Positions 21,436 to 47,548 of a DNA stretch of 64,000 bases are shown here, piece by piece. The position numbers and the translations under genes were made by a program. The notes under the pieces were generated by a model, which saw only the letters and a list, made by a program, of their open reading frames with translations, was not told the origin of the DNA and made no database searches. How positions within the stretch are numbered: the stretch's first letter is position 1; the number at the start of each line of letters is the position of its first letter. Source of the stretch: Pseudomonadota bacterium (GTDB lineage: Bacteria > Bdellovibrionota > Bacteriovoracia > Bacteriovoracales > Bacteriovoracaceae); assembly GCA_027488375.1 (NCBI GenBank), contig JAIYBW010000004.1:744001-808000 (forward strand). The letters run 5' to 3'.

Positions 21436-24400
21436 TTAATTACCATTTAAAGATCTTGATTTATAATCGCGATTATTCCAGTTCTCCTGCTCAACCTTAG
21501 GCTGGATAACTTGATCGTAGGTTTCGGAGTAATTCATTTTGTCCTCACTTCCACCTCTCCAGCGACGTTCTGACCCAAGAGCTTTGCCTACGTCTTTTGT
21601 ATTTTTCTTGGCATTTTTCCACTCTTTTTTGGCCATTTTTCTCATCTTGCGATTAAGCTTTTTCTCCCAATCCTCAGGGAAGTCCGCCTGTAGTTCTTTC
21701 TTTAAATCTTCATAATCTTTTGGATTTCTTTTTTTGTAATCATCAGTAATTGTCGTCAACATTTTTTCATAATCTTCGCGACACTCTCGTGTAAATGACT
21801 GAACTGTACTCGGACGATTACCATAGCGAACTTCACGTTCTGTAAACACTGGTTCATCTTTCCAGAGATCATCATAAAAAATAGAGCATGATGCCTTAAC
21901 ATCAACTTGTTCAGTTTTATCAGTATTAACCTCTCCACTGGTTGAAGCATTGAGATCAAATATCTTCATGTTATCTAGGATACCTTGTAAAACGGCATGC
22001 TTTGGACTTTTTGGATCCGTCGTATGAAGATCTTTAAGAAAGTTCCCGTAAAGCTCCTTACCCTCATCAGAAAAAAGATCTAGTTGACCCAGATCAATGT
22101 CCGGACGTGACTTGCTGGCAAATTCCTTAAATCCACTATTATCTATAATTTTTTTGGCAAAACCAATTGAGAGATTTGCATTCTTTGACTGCTGAGCGAA
22201 GCTATTGAGCTGGTTCAGCTCTTTTTGCACGTGAGTATCGACCATACAACTATAGATCTCTTTTTGTGTCTTTTTTCCTTTACAGGCTTCATAGCTTGGA
22301 TCACCAGCAATAAATCTATTCATATCAGGTGGCCCAAAGTAAGCAATCGTCTCCGATTGGCTTTTATCTCTCAACGCCTTTTCATCAATTGAAACGCCAC
22401 TCGCTTTAGCAGCTGCAACAACTTGCTTGATATAAAAGTCCTGCATGGATTCAGCACGTTTATTAGATAAGGTTGCATGATTTACATTCGACTTCCCATG
22501 CCCTTCTCGATTGGCAGTCGCAAAAACTTTCGCCTGAAAACTTTCAACTAGTATTTTAGCTTGTTGTTCAAGTGGAATATTTTTATTATCAGTAATTGAT
22601 TTTACAAAGTTCTGGGCATCTTTAGTCACGTTGTCATTCATTTTTAGTAAATTTTGACACTTTTCACCGGTGATAGCGGATATTTTAAAAGTCCCTAAAG
22701 ACTGGTCATGACCGACAGGACGATAATTTAATCCAACTTTACAATCAATTTTAGAGACGTCTGCAATAGGACTGCCATTAGAAGTGAAGTCTTTCATTAA
22801 ATCCAGGCCACCAACAAGTCCAGGAATTTGAGAGGCATAATTCGCGCTATTAGATTCCCATTTGATTGGTGGACATTTGAGTTCCTTCGTCATTTGAACA
22901 GTTACTTCAAATTGCTTTTTATAATTATTATCTCTGATGGATTTCTCATAAGATTCTTTTTCAGCCGGATTTGCACCAGAGAGATTTATTTCCTCATTTG
23001 CCTGTTGGGCACACTTATCTTTAGCAGTTGCCAGAGCGTTAAGTCGATTGGCATCCTTTTGTAATTCTTCACATTCCTCATTCATCACTTGATCTGCACT
23101 TTCTAGGAGTTCAGCAAGAGAATTATTTAATTTAATTCCATCAGTGACACACTCAGAACCACTTTGCCATTTATCTTTATCCACAATGGTTTCATAACAA
23201 GCGGCATCGCAATCACAACCATTCTCAGTCATGATGATTTCTCCACCACGATTACGGCACTGTCTTAATTTATAATCTGAAATCTTATCCTTACATTCTG
23301 GCTCGACGTCATCGCTTCCTTCATATCGATCACAATCACACACGTCTCCACCCGTCCATACGAATTGGACACCACTCTTTTTCTCTTCTTCTCTTTTATT
23401 TTTCTCCTTACACTTTGCTTCTCTTTTCTTATCTCTGTCTGAATTACAGATTCCAACTTCTTTTTCACAAGCTGTTATGTAAGAGTAAGAAGGTTGCTCC
23501 ATGAAGTCATCATTAACACCTTCAATTGTTGTTGTTGTAGTGCTTGGGGTATATCCATCCTTACATTTTGTACAAAAGAAGCGCTTTTCTTTAAAATCAT
23601 CATTTTCAAAACCATTTTTCTTGATCACTAACTTTTCGTACTCATCACAGTGCTTAACATCTTTCTTCGTGCTGCCAATCTGGGAGAGCCAATTCTCAAT
23701 ATTACATGGCCCTTGACGATAAATCGGTTCATTGGCCCAATGAGCTTCACTACCTTTATCACGATTAAAACTCATCTTATCTGATGAGAAGCTACCGACC
23801 ATTTTTCTTTTTTCTTTGTACGAACAAGCTTTTTCTCCTGTCGTCAAATTTCGACACTCACAACCAACCCATTTCCATTTGCGATCTGGTTGTGAATTAC
23901 AATCATTCTTTGCACGATCGTACTCTTCACGATTGGCATATTTCCCATCACAAAACTTTTTCGTTTTTACACACTTACAATCAACAAATTCGTAAGACCC
24001 CTCATTGTCTGTTTTTTCAGAACATTCAGCAGCCTTTTGAATGTATTCATCTGTCCCTTCATTACAATCCCAATTTTTGCGAGGAACAAAGCTAGGATTT
24101 TTGTCCATAATACATTTACATGATTTTTCGTCATATTTGGCGAGGAACTCTAATTTATAGGACTTCTGATTATTATTTTTTGCAAGATAGTCACCACACT
24201 CTTTCTTTTCTCTCTTGACTCTCTCTTCAGAGCACTGTTTATCTTCACACTGACAAGTAATATCATTCCAAGTTTGCCCCTTAGAGCATGAGGTCTTTTT
24301 ACATTGATCAATCTCACCTTTCTCTTTTTCACCACCAAATTTAACTAACTTCTTATCGATTGTAGTATGATCTGCTAAAAAATCATCGCGATCCTTGCCA

Positions 24401-24822
24401 TTACGACCTGTGACCACTTTCCAAGTATCTTGATGTGTGGATTTGTGAATTAAAATTTCCTCTGTCCCCCATTTCTTCTTTTCTGAAGGGCTAGCTTTTT
24501 CAAATTTTATAACTCGAACGGGCTGTCCAGCTATAATGTCTCCTTTTTCATCTGTAGGCATAATAAATTTTTTATTACCATAGACTTCAATTTTGATTTT
24601 TTTATTCGCTTCTAAATCTTTTAATAAATTCCCAAGGCATTTATTCATCAACTGGGGTGATGGATGAAGTAAGCGTATGTAGGCGTTGATTGTCGCATGA
24701 CCTGATCCCCAAGCTGCCCCGGAACCATCAAGTTTTTTCTTAGCGTACTCACATTCATCTTCTGCCAGTGCCGAATGAGTAAAACTGAAAAAAAGAAATA
24801 AAATAAATAATGATCGAATCAT
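21436..24822 (-). CDS. Giant secreted Cys-rich protein with CxC modules and OmpA-like C-terminal segment
   Basis: 1128 residues with a signal peptide (about 1-20). From about 170 to 570 at least six modules end in C-x-C (TCQCE, SCKCI, DCKCV, GCECR, CDCDR, CDCDA) with further Cys between, so this half is probably a chain of disulphide-linked or metal-binding domains. A later stretch, near residue 770, reads HGKSNVNHATLSNKRAESMQDFYIKQ, which resembles the peptidoglycan-contacting part of OmpA C-terminal domains. The whole is very rich in Lys and Glu. No overall family recognised; envelope scaffold or surface role inferred. Confidence 0.65.
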   Translation of the reverse strand: MIRSLFILFLFFSFTHSALAEDECEYAKKKLDGSGAAWGSGHATINAYIRLLHPSPQLMNKCLGNLLKDLEANKKIKIEVYGNKKFIMPTDEKGDIIAGQPVRVIKFEKASPSEKKKWGTEEILIHKSTHQDTWKVVTGRNGKDRDDFLADHTTIDKKLVKFGGEKEKGEIDQCKKTSCSKGQTWNDITCQCEDKQCSEERVKREKKECGDYLAKNNNQKSYKLEFLAKYDEKSCKCIMDKNPSFVPRKNWDCNEGTDEYIQKAAECSEKTDNEGSYEFVDCKCVKTKKFCDGKYANREEYDRAKNDCNSQPDRKWKWVGCECRNLTTGEKACSYKEKRKMVGSFSSDKMSFNRDKGSEAHWANEPIYRQGPCNIENWLSQIGSTKKDVKHCDEYEKLVIKKNGFENDDFKEKRFFCTKCKDGYTPSTTTTTIEGVNDDFMEQPSYSYITACEKEVGICNSDRDKKREAKCKEKNKREEEKKSGVQFVWTGGDVCDCDRYEGSDDVEPECKDKISDYKLRQCRNRGGEIIMTENGCDCDAACYETIVDKDKWQSGSECVTDGIKLNNSLAELLESADQVMNEECEELQKDANRLNALATAKDKCAQQANEEINLSGANPAEKESYEKSIRDNNYKKQFEVTVQMTKELKCPPIKWESNSANYASQIPGLVGGLDLMKDFTSNGSPIADVSKIDCKVGLNYRPVGHDQSLGTFKISAITGEKCQNLLKMNDNVTKDAQNFVKSITDNKNIPLEQQAKILVESFQAKVFATANREGHGKSNVNHATLSNKRAESMQDFYIKQVVAAAKASGVSIDEKALRDKSQSETIAYFGPPDMNRFIAGDPSYEACKGKKTQKEIYSCMVDTHVQKELNQLNSFAQQSKNANLSIGFAKKIIDNSGFKEFASKSRPDIDLGQLDLFSDEGKELYGNFLKDLHTTDPKSPKHAVLQGILDNMKIFDLNASTSGEVNTDKTEQVDVKASCSIFYDDLWKDEPVFTEREVRYGNRPSTVQSFTRECREDYEKMLTTITDDYKKRNPKDYEDLKKELQADFPEDWEKKLNRKMRKMAKKEWKNAKKNTKDVGKALGSERRWRGGSEDKMNYSETYDQVIQPKVEQENWNNRDYKSRSLNGN

Positions 24823-27583: not shown

Positions 27584-29383
27584 TTATTGAGCAAGAACTC
27601 CCATCGCCTCATGGATTTTATCGTCAGGACTTACATTCTTTGGAAAATCTCCATTGGGAGGTAATTCAAACTGATGACCATTATCCCTTGTTATTGTAGG
27701 CAAGAAACCACTTGGAACTGATGTAGGATGGGAAACATCATTGCCTAAATCTCCTACTTTCATGGAATTTTCGTCATATAGTCCTGAAGCTACAAATTCA
27801 GTTAAGTTATTTAAATCCTCATCTGATAGTTTGAGTGGAAATTGCGCTGTATCTGTTCCAAAATCAAGGTAATTATAAGGGACAAGCTGATCTCTTTGGA
27901 AAAAGAAATCATAAAATTGAGAACCATAATTAGCTGTATTAAATAATCTTTCGTTGATTGGTCCTCTTAGATGGTATTTTATTGCATTATTCAATGCTAG
28001 CCGTGCTCTCTCCTTAAAATTTGCAGCTTTTCGAGATTGCGCCTTCTCCGTTCCATGATGAAAATACGGAAAGGTTTCAACGACATTTCTCAAAGTTGGC
28101 GTTCTAAATTTGAAACAATCAACTTCTTCGAAGGTCGCATTAGAACGACCGATATCAGGTGCATAATTGGCTTCGGTTTGTATGTTATTGCCAGGGACAT
28201 GGCACTTCGGAACTGTGCCTCGTTGAGCTCTCTGCCCATGAAAAAAACCACTCCTGATGTTACCAGTAAAAGATGGTCTAGAAAGTGAGCTTGAAACATC
28301 GCTCACAACTCCTAGAGCGTGAAACTGATTGTCAGTAAATTGAGGAGGGGCGTGACAATTAATACAACCGGCACCAACGTGTTCTTTTCCATTAAGTACA
28401 AATTTCTCTCCCGGCTTAGTCACAAAAATACTGAGACCGATTAACTGTTCTTTCGATAAACTACTTTCGCCTTTAACAAATCGATCATAAGGGGTATTTT
28501 TGCTCACGTGGGTTACAATAAAGGCACTTAATGCAACTCCAATAAATTTATCGGTAATTTTATCGATACCGTAAACTTCTTTAAATAGATTTCTATACTC
28601 TTTGACACTATTCAGTTTCGCAACAGTAAGAGCAACACATTCATTTCTGTTCGGAACTGATAACTCTCCGCTCGGTCTTAATCTTGGAACACCACTCACC
28701 AACACATCTTGTGCATTAAACTGCTGAGTGTCCTTGCCTGAGTATGGATTCACAAAATTAGTATGACCAAGCAACACTGGCTCAGAAAAAAGAGGGCCAC
28801 CTTGCCTAAAAATATTTTCTCCATCAATAGTTAATGGGTTACCTCCGCAAAGCTCCTCTGGCGTGTGTAAAGGAAGTAAAGTTTGAAAAAAAAGATCACC
28901 AAAACGACCGTCCCACAAAAGACCTGAATCAGTTTCTTTATTAAGTCTATATCCTACATTGACAGTCGAAAGTGTATTTCTAAACATTTTAAGCTTTGAT
29001 CGAAATCCAAAGCCATCATCACCGACTTCACGATTAGTCGCTATAGTTCCCGTGGCAAATTCCTTACCTACATTATCTCCAGTAGGCCCACCAATACCGA
29101 GTGCACCCACACTGAGACCTATACCATCCGCAAAGCCATGATTTGTGAGATGGCAAGTGGCACAACTCACATCATTATTTCGAGACAAAATAGGGTCGTT
29201 AAATATTTTTCTACCTAGCTCTAGCTCAAGCTGACTTGGCTTGCGACCAAAAATACTCATGTAATTAATTTCGGGCATCTCAACGAGATGATCTTTAAAC
29301 TTATGACGAACTTCTTTTTCAAGAATTATTAAATCTTGGTTACAACTCACGAGAAGCAACAAAATAAATAGTTTAGAGACCAA
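27584..29383 (-). CDS. Di-haem cytochrome c peroxidase/MauG-like lipoprotein
   Basis: 599 residues from a TTG start backed by GGAGG six bases upstream. A lipobox LLVSC (Cys14) anchors it in a membrane. Two haem c sites are present: CATCH at 74-78 and CINCH at 340-344. Surrounding sequence (GRKIFNDPILSRNNDVSCATCH, NTPYDRFVKGESSLS) is characteristic of the CCP/MauG superfamily. At 599 residues it is much longer than the usual 350, with an insertion between the haems and a long C-terminal part. It overlaps the preceding pilin-like gene by 11 bases and is the last gene of that operon, so it may oxidatively modify or serve the pilus-like structure (inference). Confidence 0.9.
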   Translation of the reverse strand: MVSKLFILLLLVSCNQDLIILEKEVRHKFKDHLVEMPEINYMSIFGRKPSQLELELGRKIFNDPILSRNNDVSCATCHLTNHGFADGIGLSVGALGIGGPTGDNVGKEFATGTIATNREVGDDGFGFRSKLKMFRNTLSTVNVGYRLNKETDSGLLWDGRFGDLFFQTLLPLHTPEELCGGNPLTIDGENIFRQGGPLFSEPVLLGHTNFVNPYSGKDTQQFNAQDVLVSGVPRLRPSGELSVPNRNECVALTVAKLNSVKEYRNLFKEVYGIDKITDKFIGVALSAFIVTHVSKNTPYDRFVKGESSLSKEQLIGLSIFVTKPGEKFVLNGKEHVGAGCINCHAPPQFTDNQFHALGVVSDVSSSLSRPSFTGNIRSGFFHGQRAQRGTVPKCHVPGNNIQTEANYAPDIGRSNATFEEVDCFKFRTPTLRNVVETFPYFHHGTEKAQSRKAANFKERARLALNNAIKYHLRGPINERLFNTANYGSQFYDFFFQRDQLVPYNYLDFGTDTAQFPLKLSDEDLNNLTEFVASGLYDENSMKVGDLGNDVSHPTSVPSGFLPTITRDNGHQFELPPNGDFPKNVSPDDKIHEAMGVLAQ

Positions 29384-30272
29384 TGGATCCTCCCATGCTA
29401 TTTACACCTTCTACGGCGTAATCAAAATCTTCAGTTAATTGGACAGAACGAACAGAAAGAAAGTCTTGGCAGCCTTGCTTAGCAGTTCCAGTTACAATAC
29501 GCTGGCTAATGCACTCATTATAAAATGTGAACACTCGTGCAGATAAAATATTTTCATTTGATTGGTTTGAAAAAATAAAATATCCGATACTTGATACAGA
29601 TTCAAAATCACGTTTTGTAAGAATGGATCTGATTGAGTTATCTTTTGGATCAAATCTGAAAATTTGAACACCATAATTAGAGTTTTTATTGAACACCGGA
29701 TTTGTGCACATTGGATTAGATCGAAGACAGCAATGAACACTATAACCATTCGTCGTGCTTCTTATAAAGGGCCAGAGGTTATTTTTTTGAAGAGTATTAT
29801 AATTCAAGGAATTAGTATTCAACATATTAGATAAAGGTAAGCATGTCGAAATGTAAGTGAGATACCTATCGCCTAATTTCCTCCTCACTAAAAAACTTGT
29901 GAGATAAGGTCCAACAGAAGTAGGAAGTGGAGCTATGGGATTAGTGATATGACTTAAAAGTGCTTGTCCATTTAATTGAGTAGAATTTCTGCTCAATGTA
30001 TTTCCATTACCAAGCTTATAAAAAAGGTTCAAATCAAATTGATTTTTTTTCAATCCCTTGAGCTGCAATTTAAGGAGCTTCACTCCTTTAACTTGCATTT
30101 GGAATTGAGCTTCCTTGCGCGCAGAAGCTTTTGAATTTAATTGGATCATATCAAGAATTTTAGCCGCTATTAAACCAACCCCAGAGAGAAGTCCTAAGGC
30201 AACAAGCACCTCTAAAAGACTAAAGCCACGAGAGTTCAGGCGATTCTTATTGCGCAACTTGAATGATACCAA
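29373..30272 (-). CDS. Prepilin-like protein with class III-type N-terminus (PilV/GspI-like)
   Basis: 299 residues from a TTG start placed after GGAGGGG. The prepilin peptidase site RG|FSLLEVLVALGLLSGVGLIAAKIL begins at Gly16/Phe17 with Glu at +5, so it is cleaved, methylated and inserted into a type IV pilus or type II secretion pseudopilus. The C-terminal globular part has several Cys (STCLPL, HCCLRSNPMCTNP, CISQRIV, KQGCQDFLS). It overlaps the flanking genes on both sides. Confidence 0.85.
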   Translation of the reverse strand: MVSFKLRNKNRLNSRGFSLLEVLVALGLLSGVGLIAAKILDMIQLNSKASARKEAQFQMQVKGVKLLKLQLKGLKKNQFDLNLFYKLGNGNTLSRNSTQLNGQALLSHITNPIAPLPTSVGPYLTSFLVRRKLGDRYLTYISTCLPLSNMLNTNSLNYNTLQKNNLWPFIRSTTNGYSVHCCLRSNPMCTNPVFNKNSNYGVQIFRFDPKDNSIRSILTKRDFESVSSIGYFIFSNQSNENILSARVFTFYNECISQRIVTGTAKQGCQDFLSVRSVQLTEDFDYAVEGVNSMGGSIGL

Positions 30273-33171
30273 CTTCCCCTCCGCTCCAATTGGCCAATGC
30301 CATCTTCATCATGAATCTAAAATAGAAATTTGAAGTATTTTTTGCTTTAGAAATTTCATCTACTGTAGGCAATCTCTCGCTACTCGCACAAGAACTTCGA
30401 ATAACAATTTCGCCCTTTGACTGGTTAAAGCAAGCTTTCACAGCATTAGCAGGCTCCTCACTAAGAGCTAAAAATTTACCTTCAAAATTAATATATTTTG
30501 TCTGATCCTGATTAAACATTTCTCCTACATCCATACCTGTATCTGATTTCACATTCACCCACACAGGATTTAACTCTGACTCTGCCCAAGCAGTAGGGAA
30601 AGGATGTTTAGGATGATTAGGATTCACTAATTGATACGCCACCTCCCAACCAGAGGTTGTGAGCGGAGGTAAAAAAGCTCCATTGCTATTTTTACAAATA
30701 TTACCAGCCTCATCAAACTTGTTTGTTTTCTGGCTAGAAATATAGATCTTATGTGGGAAATTTTTCTCACGACATAAAACACGTAAATTTTCGTTACTAG
30801 ATTGACCGTAAGGTTTATTTTTCTGAACAAACTTTACGCCTTTAAAGCGCGGAGTGTGAAAAAGTAAACCATAGTTTTTTGAATCACTCGAACTGTTGAG
30901 GTAAAGACTTTCTGAAATTTTTTTAACAACAGTCTCACCCTTGCCATCAAAATGAATCCCCCACTTTACGTTCGGATCCAAAGCATCTGTAGGAATCTCA
31001 GGAGCTGGAGCATAGACATATCCCGCATTATCAACTTTGAGACCGACCCAAAACTTTTGACTTAAAAGTGTTGGCTTGTCTCCGCTTTTGTCAGCATAAT
31101 CTCTAAGACTAGTTTCTTGGTTAAGACCGACTGGAGAGAAAAAGCTTCCTTGAGTTATAAAATTCATGACCACCATTGTGGCATCTGGTGAGATGTCGTC
31201 GCTGGCAGCACTGATACCGAGAATTTCTAATCCACTAGCGTCTAAGTTACCATCCTGTGTTAACAAAGTCTTGAATGGAGCCTTTTTAATATCCTCTCTC
31301 CCAAGGCGGAAACATATTTCATTAGCAGCATCATAGTTTCCATTCACTAAAGCTTCTGACCCAGCAGGGGCAGAGCTCGTTGGCCTCAAGACTTCCCGAG
31401 CAAGCATGTGCTTACCAAAGGCAAAACAAAGCACAGGTAATTGAGTACTACAGGATTCGGAGATAAACTCAAGACCATTGTTATCACCATTCTTCAATTT
31501 AGCAGAAAGGCAAGAGCTTGCATAAACCTCACTTGGGGTTGGGTATAATTCATAAAAATTCGATACATGATTTTCATATTGAACACACTCAGGAACTCCA
31601 ACATCTAAAGGCTCAGTTGGTTGGTTATGCATGACTCCAAAAGTCCCAAGTCCGAACTGATCACAGTTTTTCATATAGCAAGCCGTACATCCTACAGGCC
31701 CAGTGGAAATGCTAAAAGTATCCACGGTACCTGGAGGAAGAGCTCCTGCATTAACTTTATAACTAAATGTGGAGGTGTAGTGATTGGTAGGATTACTATT
31801 ATAATTGGAACTCGCCACACATATATTTCGGCATATACTGTTAGCAGAAAGATTATCATTAACATCACTTAACTTCGCGGTGATCGTTTGTTCTGCACCT
31901 ATGATCATAGGGACTTTAATAGGACCAAACCATGTATAATACCAATTATCGTTAGGACCTTTTCTGTAAGTTCTTCCACCCAAATCAAAAGACTGTGCAA
32001 AAGTCACAGGGAGCTCGACTTCGCTCTTGTTTTTAAATATGACTTTAGGAGCAATCTGAATAGTGTTACCGGAATTAACAAGAACGTTTGGTGCGACATA
32101 AGCTGCTCGAATCAAATTTTCTATTTCTTGATACTCCCTTTCCGCTCCTAATTTCTGGATACAACGAAAACTTCTCTCATTACAAGCGGAGTAGACAGGC
32201 CCAGAGTCAGGGTTCGTATTAGATACCTGATCTTGAGATTGCAAGAACTGTGATCCTAAAGTTCCACCAATCACACCTGAGCGGATTTGCGAATTTGTAG
32301 GAGTTAAATCAAGCGGAGGATTAGTGTTAGAACTTAGTGAATCACTACGAAATCCTGCTTGATTAAAGACCGTATTATTATCAGGATCCCCGAAGGCATT
32401 TGCGGTGAGTGAAATTCTTTTACTCGTTGTAGGATCATCACAAACACCTAAATCTCCGGCCCATATAAATCCTCTAATAAAGCCTCTCCCGAGACTTGAA
32501 CTAGAGGTGTCGGCACCACTTTTGTAAGTTGTTTTAATCGTGTATTCGAATCCAATTGCTTTCAGATCATATTTTGCTAATCCATTAGGCTCTGGATTTA
32601 TTTCTCCAAACGAAATGTCTGATGCAGGGTTTGTAACAATTGGCTTAATATTGATTTCAAAAACAGGATCCAGTTTTGTCATCATGACTTTTGAAAGACC
32701 GATTCCGCTATTAGCGTTCATATCAAGCTTAAAGCATTTTCCATATTTTGATGATAACTGACAGCTCTGTCCCTGGGCGACTGGCAAGAAACCACCAAAT
32801 TTTGCTGACCACATAGCTGGCGGAAATAATTCATCTGTACTGGGTCTTGGCAATTGAATGTAGACGTTAGAAAGCTGAGAGGCGAGGGAAGAGACGCTAA
32901 TTTTCGAGCACAAGCCCGAAGTGAGCTTAGGAATTGCTGAATTGGCCACTACCGTCTTTGTATCTAAAAAGACAGATTTCAATTTTTTCTCAACGGTCGA
33001 TGTTAAAGAGATCGCATCAACTTTTCTGATGGCCGAATCCTCACCTTTTTTTGACATCTTTGACAAATTTATTGCGGCAACAAGACCGACACCAAGTACA
33101 GCAATTGAGCCAATGACACTTACAATACTTAAGCCATCTTGATTTTTAAAAAACTTATTCATTTTTTTCAT
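30247..33171 (-). CDS. Very large pilin-like protein with C-type-lectin-like segments
   Basis: 974 residues, start preceded by AAAGG. The N-terminus KNQDG|LSIVSVIGSIAVLGVGLVAAINL resembles a prepilin but has Ser instead of Glu at +5, typical of tip-located minor pilins. The C-terminal 400 residues contain two stretches like degenerate C-type-lectin domains (YDAANEICFRLGRED then FWVGLKVD; KFDEAGNICKNSNGAFLPPL then PVWVNVKS). A tip adhesin is the likely role. The Cys content is high, implying disulphides. Confidence 0.75.
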   Translation of the reverse strand: MKKMNKFFKNQDGLSIVSVIGSIAVLGVGLVAAINLSKMSKKGEDSAIRKVDAISLTSTVEKKLKSVFLDTKTVVANSAIPKLTSGLCSKISVSSLASQLSNVYIQLPRPSTDELFPPAMWSAKFGGFLPVAQGQSCQLSSKYGKCFKLDMNANSGIGLSKVMMTKLDPVFEINIKPIVTNPASDISFGEINPEPNGLAKYDLKAIGFEYTIKTTYKSGADTSSSSLGRGFIRGFIWAGDLGVCDDPTTSKRISLTANAFGDPDNNTVFNQAGFRSDSLSSNTNPPLDLTPTNSQIRSGVIGGTLGSQFLQSQDQVSNTNPDSGPVYSACNERSFRCIQKLGAEREYQEIENLIRAAYVAPNVLVNSGNTIQIAPKVIFKNKSEVELPVTFAQSFDLGGRTYRKGPNDNWYYTWFGPIKVPMIIGAEQTITAKLSDVNDNLSANSICRNICVASSNYNSNPTNHYTSTFSYKVNAGALPPGTVDTFSISTGPVGCTACYMKNCDQFGLGTFGVMHNQPTEPLDVGVPECVQYENHVSNFYELYPTPSEVYASSCLSAKLKNGDNNGLEFISESCSTQLPVLCFAFGKHMLAREVLRPTSSAPAGSEALVNGNYDAANEICFRLGREDIKKAPFKTLLTQDGNLDASGLEILGISAASDDISPDATMVVMNFITQGSFFSPVGLNQETSLRDYADKSGDKPTLLSQKFWVGLKVDNAGYVYAPAPEIPTDALDPNVKWGIHFDGKGETVVKKISESLYLNSSSDSKNYGLLFHTPRFKGVKFVQKNKPYGQSSNENLRVLCREKNFPHKIYISSQKTNKFDEAGNICKNSNGAFLPPLTTSGWEVAYQLVNPNHPKHPFPTAWAESELNPVWVNVKSDTGMDVGEMFNQDQTKYINFEGKFLALSEEPANAVKACFNQSKGEIVIRSSCASSERLPTVDEISKAKNTSNFYFRFMMKMALANWSGGEVGIIQVAQ

Positions 33172-33197
33172 ATAAACCTTTTACCCAATTTATTTTT

Positions 33198-34544
33198 TTA
33201 GTGCGTTGGAATTTCTTGAATTTCAGTGGTGGTCTCAAGTTTCGTTTGAAAGCTTGAATCTTCAACGATTAATCTCACCGACCTTGCTGGTTCCATTTTC
33301 GATAGAGAAGTATTTTTATAATTTGCGGGGATAACATAACTCATTGAAATTTTATCAGAGCCATTTGATGACATGAATGAAGCAATAAATTGCTCAACCT
33401 GATCAAGCTTGATCGGCGAAACATCAATGTTATAAGTGATGGTCCCAGAATTAACAAAATGCTGATTTTCTTGAGAGTCTTCAGCGTCACACTTTTCAAC
33501 ACTCCAGCTTGACTGAGGTTCATCTGACCACCAGCACTTGCCTGTGGCCTGAGACACCATCAATTGTCTTTTAACGGTTTCATTTCTTGAGTAGCAGGTG
33601 ACCGTATCTGTCCATGTCACTTTCTCCATCGGCATGAGGTAATCTTTTCCAGGCATTGCATTGACTACGGAAGGAGCTGGGAATACACCAGGAAACAAAG
33701 TTTGATCTAATTTGATATCCTTTTGTACTTGCATCTCATACAGAACGCCGGGTCCCAAATTCACAGTTGTCGCAGAAACAGGAACAGATGGAGTATAGGT
33801 GTAATTCTGATCTCCCCTACAGGCCGGATTATCGTTCTTGCCAACTGAAACCTCACATGATCTTTTGCAATTGGCAACATTCACTGTCACTTTCGGAATA
33901 GCAATCGGTCTTCGTGTCGAAAAATACTCGATAATTTCCTTATTCTTATTTTCAGCAGACCCAGCTGATGTGTTTTGAACTTCAACAATTACTTTTATCA
34001 GAACAAATGCTCTATCGTTATCGGATTTTAAAACTTTGAGTGGTATTTTCCCAAGGGACTCTGACAGTTGAAGTGAATCTGTAAAGGCATCATAAAGCTT
34101 TAGACCGATTTTTCCTTTAAACTTTGTAGCTTGCGCCCCATTAGAGTCACTGTCATTAATAATTGAACTATCTACATTAAATACAAGAAATCCCTGTTCA
34201 TCAAATGATCCCTCATCTAGGCCAAGTTTTTGAGGTAAAATTGTCTGAAGCGTTCCATTAATCAACTGTAGACCAGTCCAGCGGCAACGATAAGTATCAG
34301 TCGATCCAGTAAAAGCTCCTTGCTTACAAATAACCATGTTTGAACTAATTAAGTAGTTCGCAATAGTTCTCATTTTGTCGATACCAATTAAAGAATCTTT
34401 TTGAGAATTAAGAACTCGGATACTCTTTTGCATATTATCTTGCGTTGACATGTAAAAAGTAATTCCGACACCTACAGCTGCAGCGACAATCAGGGCAAAT
34501 ATGAGAGCAGATCCACGTTGATTGCCTCTTAAAAAGTAATACAT
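33198..34544 (-). CDS. PilX-like minor pilin protein
   Basis: 448 residues from the ATG after GGGAG (an upstream in-frame ATG lacks a good signal). The N-terminus RGNQRG|SALIFALIVAAAVGVGITFYMS is a prepilin-type hydrophobic helix without Glu at +5, as in PilX/GspK proteins. The rest is soluble with a Cys-rich centre (CKRSCEVSVG, CYSRN). It opens an operon with the giant pilin-like protein, a PilV-like protein and the di-haem peroxidase. No pilus motor or secretin genes are nearby, so they must be elsewhere. Confidence 0.78.
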   Translation of the reverse strand: MYYFLRGNQRGSALIFALIVAAAVGVGITFYMSTQDNMQKSIRVLNSQKDSLIGIDKMRTIANYLISSNMVICKQGAFTGSTDTYRCRWTGLQLINGTLQTILPQKLGLDEGSFDEQGFLVFNVDSSIINDSDSNGAQATKFKGKIGLKLYDAFTDSLQLSESLGKIPLKVLKSDNDRAFVLIKVIVEVQNTSAGSAENKNKEIIEYFSTRRPIAIPKVTVNVANCKRSCEVSVGKNDNPACRGDQNYTYTPSVPVSATTVNLGPGVLYEMQVQKDIKLDQTLFPGVFPAPSVVNAMPGKDYLMPMEKVTWTDTVTCYSRNETVKRQLMVSQATGKCWWSDEPQSSWSVEKCDAEDSQENQHFVNSGTITYNIDVSPIKLDQVEQFIASFMSSNGSDKISMSYVIPANYKNTSLSKMEPARSVRLIVEDSSFQTKLETTTEIQEIPTH

Positions 34545-34758: not shown

Positions 34759-40190
<5,432 letters not shown>

Positions 40191-47182: not shown

Positions 47183-47548
47183 TGGTGGAGGTGGCGGGAA
47201 TCGAACCCGCGTCCGAAAAACCTTCCAGTAGAGAGTCCCACGTGCGTCTCTGGTAAGTTAGTACCAATACTATTTTTGATTTTTACTGAACCAACAAACA
47301 GTCGTTGCTTTTAAAGAGTAACAACACCTGATCTCTTCGCGGTTTATATTTCGAACGTTCCGCCAACGTTTTTACCAGCTTTTTGTTATCGGTGCTGGCC
47401 CCTCAGGTGTCAATTAGACGTAGTCTAATTAAGCAGCCATTGCGTAATCGTTGCCGATTAACATGTGATCGACTTTTGAAGTGGCCTGTCGATCAACCAC
47501 TGCACGCACTCAATCCTTCTAGTTCCCCGTCGAAACCTGGGCACCCCC
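47183..47548 (-). ncRNA. ssrA: tmRNA (transfer-messenger RNA)
   Basis: 366 nt. The 5' end GGGGGTGCCCAGG pairs with the 3' acceptor strand CACCTCC ahead of the encoded ACCA, and the T-arm GGTTCGATTCCC is present. The tag frame reads GNDYAMAA and ends in TAA (47429-47455), with the stop inside the helix AATTAGAC/GTCTAATT. tmRNA with SmpB rescues stalled ribosomes and tags the product for proteolysis. The apparent protein frame reading across the 3' end on the other strand is an artefact. Confidence 0.95.

What the first reader, a model, noticed from the sequence alone, without database searches (positions are those of the whole stretch)
27584..34544. Pilin-like operon ending in a di-haem peroxidase
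A PilX-like protein, a 974-residue pilin-like protein with lectin-like segments, a PilV-like protein and a lipoprotein with two CxxCH haem sites follow each other with short gaps or overlaps. Placing a MauG/CCP protein in a pilus operon suggests redox maturation of the structure, for example Trp or Tyr modification of a large tip adhesin. This role is inferred.
Basis: partly seen in the sequence, partly recalled or inferred. Interest (0 to 1): 0.62.

Follow-up and report, generated by a model that had tools for sequence, protein, structure and literature searches.

The report
Pilin operon with coupled haem peroxidase
A predatory-type bacterium makes three unusual pilin-like proteins together with a two-haem peroxidase, and across its phylum this enzyme is found only in genomes that have those pilins and is matched by a histidine at the very end of one of them, so the enzyme most likely acts on or with the pilus tip.

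Summary
On the minus strand, four genes (PilX-like, 974-aa pilin-like, PilV-like, diheme CCP/MauG lipoprotein) lie 26 bp apart or overlapping. It directly follows the PilV-like gene in all nine positive genomes of the window's family. It is convergent or unlinked in some distant genomes but still co-retained.

Peroxide-activating residues are invariant, but the MauG-defining axial Tyr294 is replaced by an invariant His. That change abolishes the bis-Fe(IV) signature in MauG and BthA. The relay Trp199 is absent. No Trp or Tyr in the pilins tracks the enzyme.

What does track it is new: the PilX-like pilin has an internal His and ends exactly in His in 12/12 peroxidase-positive genomes and 0/9 negative ones. 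I therefore propose a dedicated H2O2-dependent accessory enzyme of the minor-pilin (tip) complex, with the PilX-like tail as substrate or docking site. Coupling is shown. Chemistry is inferred. The closest functional precedent is TfcP of Myxococcus. "Lectin-like segments" could not be confirmed.

The parts
33198..34544 (-). PilX-like minor pilin (448 aa from the ATG at 34544; the 453-aa frame from 34559 is used for residue numbers)
33201..33203 (-). codon of the C-terminal His453 of the PilX-like pilin (present in 12/12 peroxidase-positive, 0/9 negative genomes)
33459..33461 (-). codon of His367 of the PilX-like pilin (same distribution)
30247..33171 (-). 974-aa Cys-rich pilin-like protein (large modular minor pilin, putative tip adhesin)
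29373..30272 (-). PilV-like minor pilin (canonical GFSLLE prepilin motif), TTG start
27584..29383 (-). diheme CCP/MauG-superfamily lipoprotein, 599 aa, TTG start behind GGGAGG, overlaps the pilV-like gene by 11 nt
29342..29353 (-). lipobox LVSC of the peroxidase
29150..29164 (-). haem motif 1, C74ATCH (peroxidatic haem by alignment to MauG C31-H35)
28853..28885 (-). distal pocket Q167/P171/E177 = MauG Q103/P107/E113, invariant in the family
28352..28366 (-). haem motif 2, C340INCH
27971..27973 (-). codon of His471, at the place of MauG axial Tyr294, invariant in the family

Best explanation
This is an operon for three minor pilins that probably form a pilus-tip complex, plus a dedicated membrane-anchored periplasmic diheme peroxidase of the CCP/MauG superfamily that works on or with that complex. 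Shown by computation: gene order, strict co-occurrence, an intact peroxide-activating haem site, loss of the MauG/bCCP sixth-ligand residue in favour of His, and matching conservation of two histidines (one C-terminal) in the PilX-like pilin. Inferred: the PilX-like pilin is the direct partner. Its His-ended tail docks at, or is oxidised by, the enzyme in the periplasm before assembly, using H2O2 at haem 1 with haem 2 (predicted His344/His471) as electron reservoir. This finishes, stabilises or activates the tip complex. It is a quality or maturation step that some relatives have dispensed with.
For: Order PilX-like/large/PilV-like/peroxidase in the window, G025, G035 and L060, L062, L067 and L071 of other genera, with L059, L068 and L070 showing the same order as far as their contigs reach. 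Enzyme in 13/369 genomes, all within the 24 with the large pilin, Fisher p 8e-18 uncorrected for phylogeny. Co-retained in G273 and G274 although unlinked, and in G272 convergent. Pairwise identities of enzyme and large pilin correlate, Mantel r 0.80, p 1e-4. Q/P/E pocket and both CxxCH invariant in 10/10. PilX-like H367 and C-terminal H in 12/12 positives vs 0/9 negatives, including an out-of-sample check on G090 (+) and G275 (-). Clade-structured random labellings give one perfect PilX column in only 5/1500 and never two. Three independent contrasts all agree. The genome also has a canonical-length 343-aa CCP, so general H2O2 defence is covered. Precedent for a haem protein needed by a minor-pilin complex: TfcP (PMC8833165).
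Against: No experiment. The AF2 models of enzyme and large pilin are poor (pLDDT 48 and 53), so neither docking nor haem ligation is seen. The His471 ligand assignment rests on a motif alignment across an insertion. Only three to four independent phylogenetic contrasts exist, so the sign test cannot reach significance (p 0.25). The cassette is kept without the enzyme in at least G004 and G150. Tip location is inferred from minor-pilin analogy.
Confidence: 0.5

Rival explanations
1. MauG-like maturase: long-range radical oxidation of Trp/Tyr in the large pilin.
For: Same superfamily; best named model is the MauG-like TIGR03981; functional coupling to pilins shown. Y499 of the large pilin is Tyr/His in 12/12 positives but 3/11 negatives, a weak lead.
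Against: Axial Tyr294 replaced by invariant His471; the same change abolishes the near-infrared bis-Fe(IV) signature in MauG and BthA, and BthA Y463H still reduces H2O2 with a donor (PMC6405878). Trp199 absent (GxGC); Trp93 position is W/H/L. Invariant Trp residues of the large pilin are about equally conserved without the enzyme.
Confidence: 0.12
2. TfcP-like non-catalytic role: the haem protein is a periplasmic chaperone or stabiliser of a minor pilin or the tip adhesin.
For: TfcP, a cytochrome c encoded in a Myxococcus minor-pilin/PilY1 cluster, stabilises PilY1 and is not thought to do electron transport (PMC8833165). Lost in some lineages that keep the pilins, as expected of an accessory stabiliser.
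Against: Both haems and the peroxide-activating Gln/Pro/Glu are invariant over about 45-50% identity, which argues for selection on catalysis.
Confidence: 0.2
3. Co-transcribed H2O2 scavenger that protects the pilus or the cell during prey attack, with no protein substrate of its own.
For: Peroxidase site intact; His at the sixth-ligand position is compatible with donor-dependent H2O2 reduction (PMC6405878).
Against: Strict dependence on this pilin cassette even when unlinked; matching histidines in the PilX-like pilin; a separate canonical-length CCP in the genome; Met ligand of bCCPs absent.
Confidence: 0.12
4. Neighbourhood accident: unrelated gene hitch-hiking in the operon.
For: Absent from two relatives with the pilin cassette (G004, G150).
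Against: 13/13 co-occurrence and adjacency in all nine positive genomes of the family.
Confidence: 0.02

Closest known systems
MauG (TTQ biosynthesis; TIGR03791, PDB 3L4M)
   Same: Diheme fold family, both CxxCH sites, distal Gln103/Pro107/Glu113 conserved
   Different: 96.9 bits against a cut-off of 443.9; Tyr294 is His; Trp199 missing; 599 aa with large insertions; pilin genes instead of mau genes
His-Xaa-Ser system MauG-like protein (TIGR03981)
   Same: Best-scoring named family (124.8 bits), all 11 members hit it
   Different: Far below its cut-off of 340; association with Hxs genes not tested
MbnH / MXAN_0977 di-heme enzymes (TIGR04039; PDB 6E1C is a MauG-like copper-associated protein)
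   Same: Superfamily; partner-protein logic
   Different: 93.9 bits against 362.9; partner is a pilin
Bacterial cytochrome c peroxidases (e.g. 1IQC, 2C1V)
   Same: Best PDB matches by sequence and by fold; peroxidatic pocket
   Different: Sixth-ligand Met replaced by His; extra N- and C-terminal segments and four further invariant Cys; genomic tie to pilins
BthA (Burkholderia diheme enzyme)
   Same: Variation of the MauG plan; conserved pocket
   Different: BthA keeps Tyr-His ligation; its Y463H mutant mimics the residue found here (PMC6405878)
TfcP of Myxococcus xanthus
   Same: A c-type haem protein in a minor-pilin operon, accessory, periplasmic
   Different: Single haem, His/Cys, non-catalytic, PilY1 as client (PMC8833165)
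Modular minor pilins (S. sanguinis PilB/PilC)
   Same: Large pilins with extra modules, proposed at the tip (PMC9934059)
   Different: No sequence relation found; lectin module not demonstrated here

Membership tests
CCP_MauG superfamily (PF03150) | Pfam score over the gathering cut-off | tested here: met
   117.9 bits vs 25.6
CCP_MauG superfamily (PF03150) | two CxxCH haem sites and distal Gln/Pro/Glu | tested here: met
   invariant in 10/10
Bacterial cytochrome c peroxidase (bCCP) | Met as sixth ligand of the electron-transfer haem | tested here: not met
   His471 invariant at the ligand position; alignment-based
MauG (TIGR03791) | model score over cut-off | tested here: not met
   96.9 vs 443.85
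MauG (TIGR03791) | axial Tyr294 and surface Trp199 | tested here: not met
   His471; GxGC without Trp
MauG (TIGR03791) | forms bis-Fe(IV) and oxidises protein Trp | not testable with these tools
   needs spectroscopy and mass spectrometry
His-Xaa-Ser MauG-like (TIGR03981) | model score over cut-off | tested here: not met
   124.8 vs 340
His-Xaa-Ser MauG-like (TIGR03981) | hxs genes nearby | not tested
   no Hxs model was searched
MbnH family (TIGR04039) | model score over cut-off | tested here: not met
   93.9 vs 362.85
TfcP | single CxxCH with Cys as second ligand | tested here: not met
   two CxxCH
TfcP | PilY1 in the same system | tested here: inconclusive
   no PF05567 hit in the genome, but the control rang nowhere
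Type IV minor pilins | prepilin peptidase leader and hydrophobic N-helix | tested here: met
   PilV-like over cut-off; PilX-like and large protein by sequence and by homologues; window copies of these two lack Glu5
Type IV minor pilins | incorporation in a pilus | not testable with these tools
   a PilB-like ATPase exists in the genome, 666 bits, just under the cut-off
C-type or other lectin module in the 974-aa protein | lectin family or fold match | tested here: not met
   none in Pfam or PDB profile search; Foldseek on a poor model uninformative

The most novel reading that the evidence does not exclude
A new H2O2-dependent post-translational modification of type IV minor pilins: a diheme enzyme with His/His-ligated second haem oxidises (or crosslinks) the C-terminal histidine and/or the internal histidine of a PilX-like pilin, possibly building a metal or redox site at the pilus tip used in prey recognition.
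Probability: 0.22. Interest if true: 0.85.

Novelty: new variant of a known kind. Interest (0 to 1): 0.62.

Why it matters
Haem enzymes that modify proteins are few (MauG, MbnH), and how predatory bacteria ready their pili for prey contact is poorly known. Here an enzyme, its probable client and two candidate residues are named from comparative data alone. Both the 'what does this MauG relative act on' question and the 'what does the PilX-like tail do' question become directly testable by deletion and mass spectrometry. It would also make a second case, after TfcP, of a c-type haem protein serving a minor-pilin complex, this time with catalysis apparently retained.

Tried and rejected
1) Trp/Tyr columns of the large and PilV-like pilins that track the enzyme: none perfect; Y499 and the TFG motif were followed and dropped, because G156, G159 and G252 (no enzyme found) also carry TFG. 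2) Lectin identity of the 974-aa protein: Pfam on 11 family members, PDB profile, AF2+Foldseek, all negative. 3) AF2 of the peroxidase: haem regions unmodelled, pLDDT 47.7; only confirms the CCP fold weakly. 4) MAFFT placement of Tyr294 was wrong because of an insertion (scattered residues); replaced by motif comparison with about 15 other CCP/MauG proteins of relatives. 5) In a wider alignment the C-terminal His fell out of one column because of long tails in negatives, so 'last residue is His' was scored without alignment. 6) Own promoter for the peroxidase: promoter-like sites do not exceed shuffles (17 vs 20.8); transcription cannot be judged. 8) PilY1 search uninformative. 9) Papers: nothing relevant found on MauG-like proteins with pilins; 'Bacteriovorax, pilin, lectin' and 'Bdellovibrio, C-type lectin, pilin' give 0.
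Full report
WHAT IS THERE. On the minus strand of the window, four ORFs follow each other: a PilX-like protein (33198-34544, or 34559), a 974-aa pilin-like protein (30247-33171), a PilV-like protein (29373-30272) and a 599-aa lipoprotein with two CxxCH motifs (27584-29383). They are 26 bp apart, or overlap by 26 and 11 bp. The two TTG starts sit behind GGAGGGGAAG and GGGAGGATCCA inside the upstream genes, so the peroxidase looks translationally coupled to the PilV-like gene. Upstream is a divergent gene at 34759 and downstream a methyltransferase. The window lies in contig C7 of a 3.2-Mb genome; named homologues are Bacteriovoracaceae and other Bdellovibrionota, apart from one MAG labelled Thioalkalivibrio and two weak gammaproteobacterial matches at 25-28% identity.

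FAMILIES. The lipoprotein is a CCP_MauG protein (E 7.7e-34), but it is far below the cut-offs of every named subfamily: TIGR03981 124.8/340, MauG 96.9/444, MbnH 93.9/363. The PilV-like protein carries a canonical prepilin motif over cut-off. The other two have a prepilin-like N-terminus without Glu5. Six of 11 members of the large-pilin family hit N_methyl, and its profile matches the geopilin helix. The 'lectin-like' segments could not be confirmed.

CONSERVATION. True orthologues of the peroxidase (over 400 bits) are in only 9 of 129 genomes of the family and 13 of 369 of the phylum. All 13 also have the large pilin, which 24 genomes have in all (hits covering only the N-terminal helix, all under 45 bits in those other genomes, were not counted). 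Fisher p is 8e-18 without correction for phylogeny. Within the family the enzyme is directly downstream of the PilV-like gene in all nine carriers. In family f11 it follows the same order in L068 (a record labelled Thioalkalivibrio that matches G283), is convergent in G272, and lies on other contigs in G273 and G274, yet is kept with the pilins. G004 and G150 have the three pilins and no enzyme. G019 is undecided because its contig ends in the PilV-like gene. The enzyme is much better conserved than the pilins (54% against 22-29% between G000 and G035). Distances of enzyme and large pilin correlate (Mantel r 0.80), which fits vertical co-inheritance with several losses (5 changes on the large-pilin tree).

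ACTIVE SITE. Aligned to it, both CxxCH and Gln103/Pro107/Glu113 are invariant in the family (Q167, P171, E177). These are the residues that PMC6405878 describes as conserved across bCCPs, MauG and BthA for peroxide activation. Trp93 is W, H or L. The helix that carries the sixth ligand reads AILFYN in MauG and, for example, VIEHYD in some 15 other CCP/MauG proteins of relatives, but AIxYHLRGP or close variants here, which places invariant His471 at Tyr294. In BthA the Tyr-to-His mutant, like MauG Y294H, loses the near-infrared bis-Fe(IV) feature, and the BthA mutant still reduces H2O2 with a donor (PMC6405878). Trp199 of MauG, next to the second haem motif, is missing; that it serves long-range transfer in MauG is my own knowledge. 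The enzyme should therefore activate H2O2, but not by MauG's signature state.

THE PARTNER. I compared the columns of the three pilins between peroxidase-positive and negative genomes. The large pilin and the PilV-like pilin have no separating column. The PilX-like pilin has two, and both are His: H367, and the very last residue. Positive proteins end in ...IPTH, SPPH, NPPH, EPPH, HTH, VVPH, LSPH, IPPH. Negative ones end in ...SPN, VVSN or long tails. The rule was then tested on genomes not used to find it: G090 (positive) ends in SSPH, and G275 (negative) ends in DIIP. Total 12/12 against 0/9. Random labellings with similar clade structure give one perfect PilX column in 5 of 1500 and never two. 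In that wider alignment the terminal His no longer fell in one column, so it is scored there as an alignment-free trait. The caveat is that only three to four contrasts are independent, all concordant. The cleanest is inside the genus: G004 lacks the enzyme and both His (R and N instead), while G000, G025 and G019 keep both His.

READING. Shown: the enzyme is tied to this minor-pilin set by order, co-occurrence and matching residues, and probably to its PilX-like member. Inferred: minor pilins prime the pilus and sit at the tip, so the enzyme, anchored in the periplasm by a lipid or (in f11) an N-terminal helix, acts on the complex before assembly. With an intact peroxide site and a His-ended client tail I favour oxidation or crosslinking at the tail, or a tail that docks to feed electrons. 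A TfcP-like chaperone role (PMC8833165) is the main rival. A plain scavenger is unlikely given the strict partner tie and the separate canonical-length CCP at C8:352868.

VERDICT. Observation confirmed; interpretation partly supported, with the Trp/Tyr and large-adhesin parts replaced by a PilX-like/histidine hypothesis. It is a new variant within the CCP/MauG superfamily and, to the extent of the library searched, undescribed.

Noticed in passing
L045:12927-18914 (G004): Directly convergent to the peroxidase-less pilin cassette lies a second, unrelated-looking set of large pilin-like genes (989, 163, 361 aa) plus a 494-aa secreted protein.
   Followed up: no
window 21436-24822 and 37578-40190: Two long secreted Cys-rich proteins (1128 and 870 aa) on the same strand flank the region; the first has a weak OmpA/Pal-like match (residues 743-817), the second matches nothing.
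   Followed up: partly
L052/L058 (G131): Two different but similar peroxidase copies in one assembly (one contig-end fragment behind the pilins, one near a contig start): paralogue, strain mixture or contamination.
   Followed up: no
L068: Record labelled Thioalkalivibrio carries the Bdellovibrionota cassette with gene starts nearly identical to G283 (same sampling series): probably a mis-binned contig.
   Followed up: partly
window 30247-33171, residues 495-512: A strongly conserved stretch of the large pilin is C(T/S)xCxxKxC...GLxTFG; residue 499 is Tyr/His in all peroxidase-positive genomes but Trp/Phe/Ser/Asn in most negatives.
   Followed up: partly
L046, L048 and L060: In G019, G035 and BSW11_IV the cassette lies next to what look like the same phosphoglycerate mutase and phosphofructokinase genes, whereas in the window it sits next to truA/tgt-like genes: the cassette has changed place within the family.
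   Followed up: no
window 47183-47548: tmRNA gene with tag GNDYAMAA.
   Followed up: no
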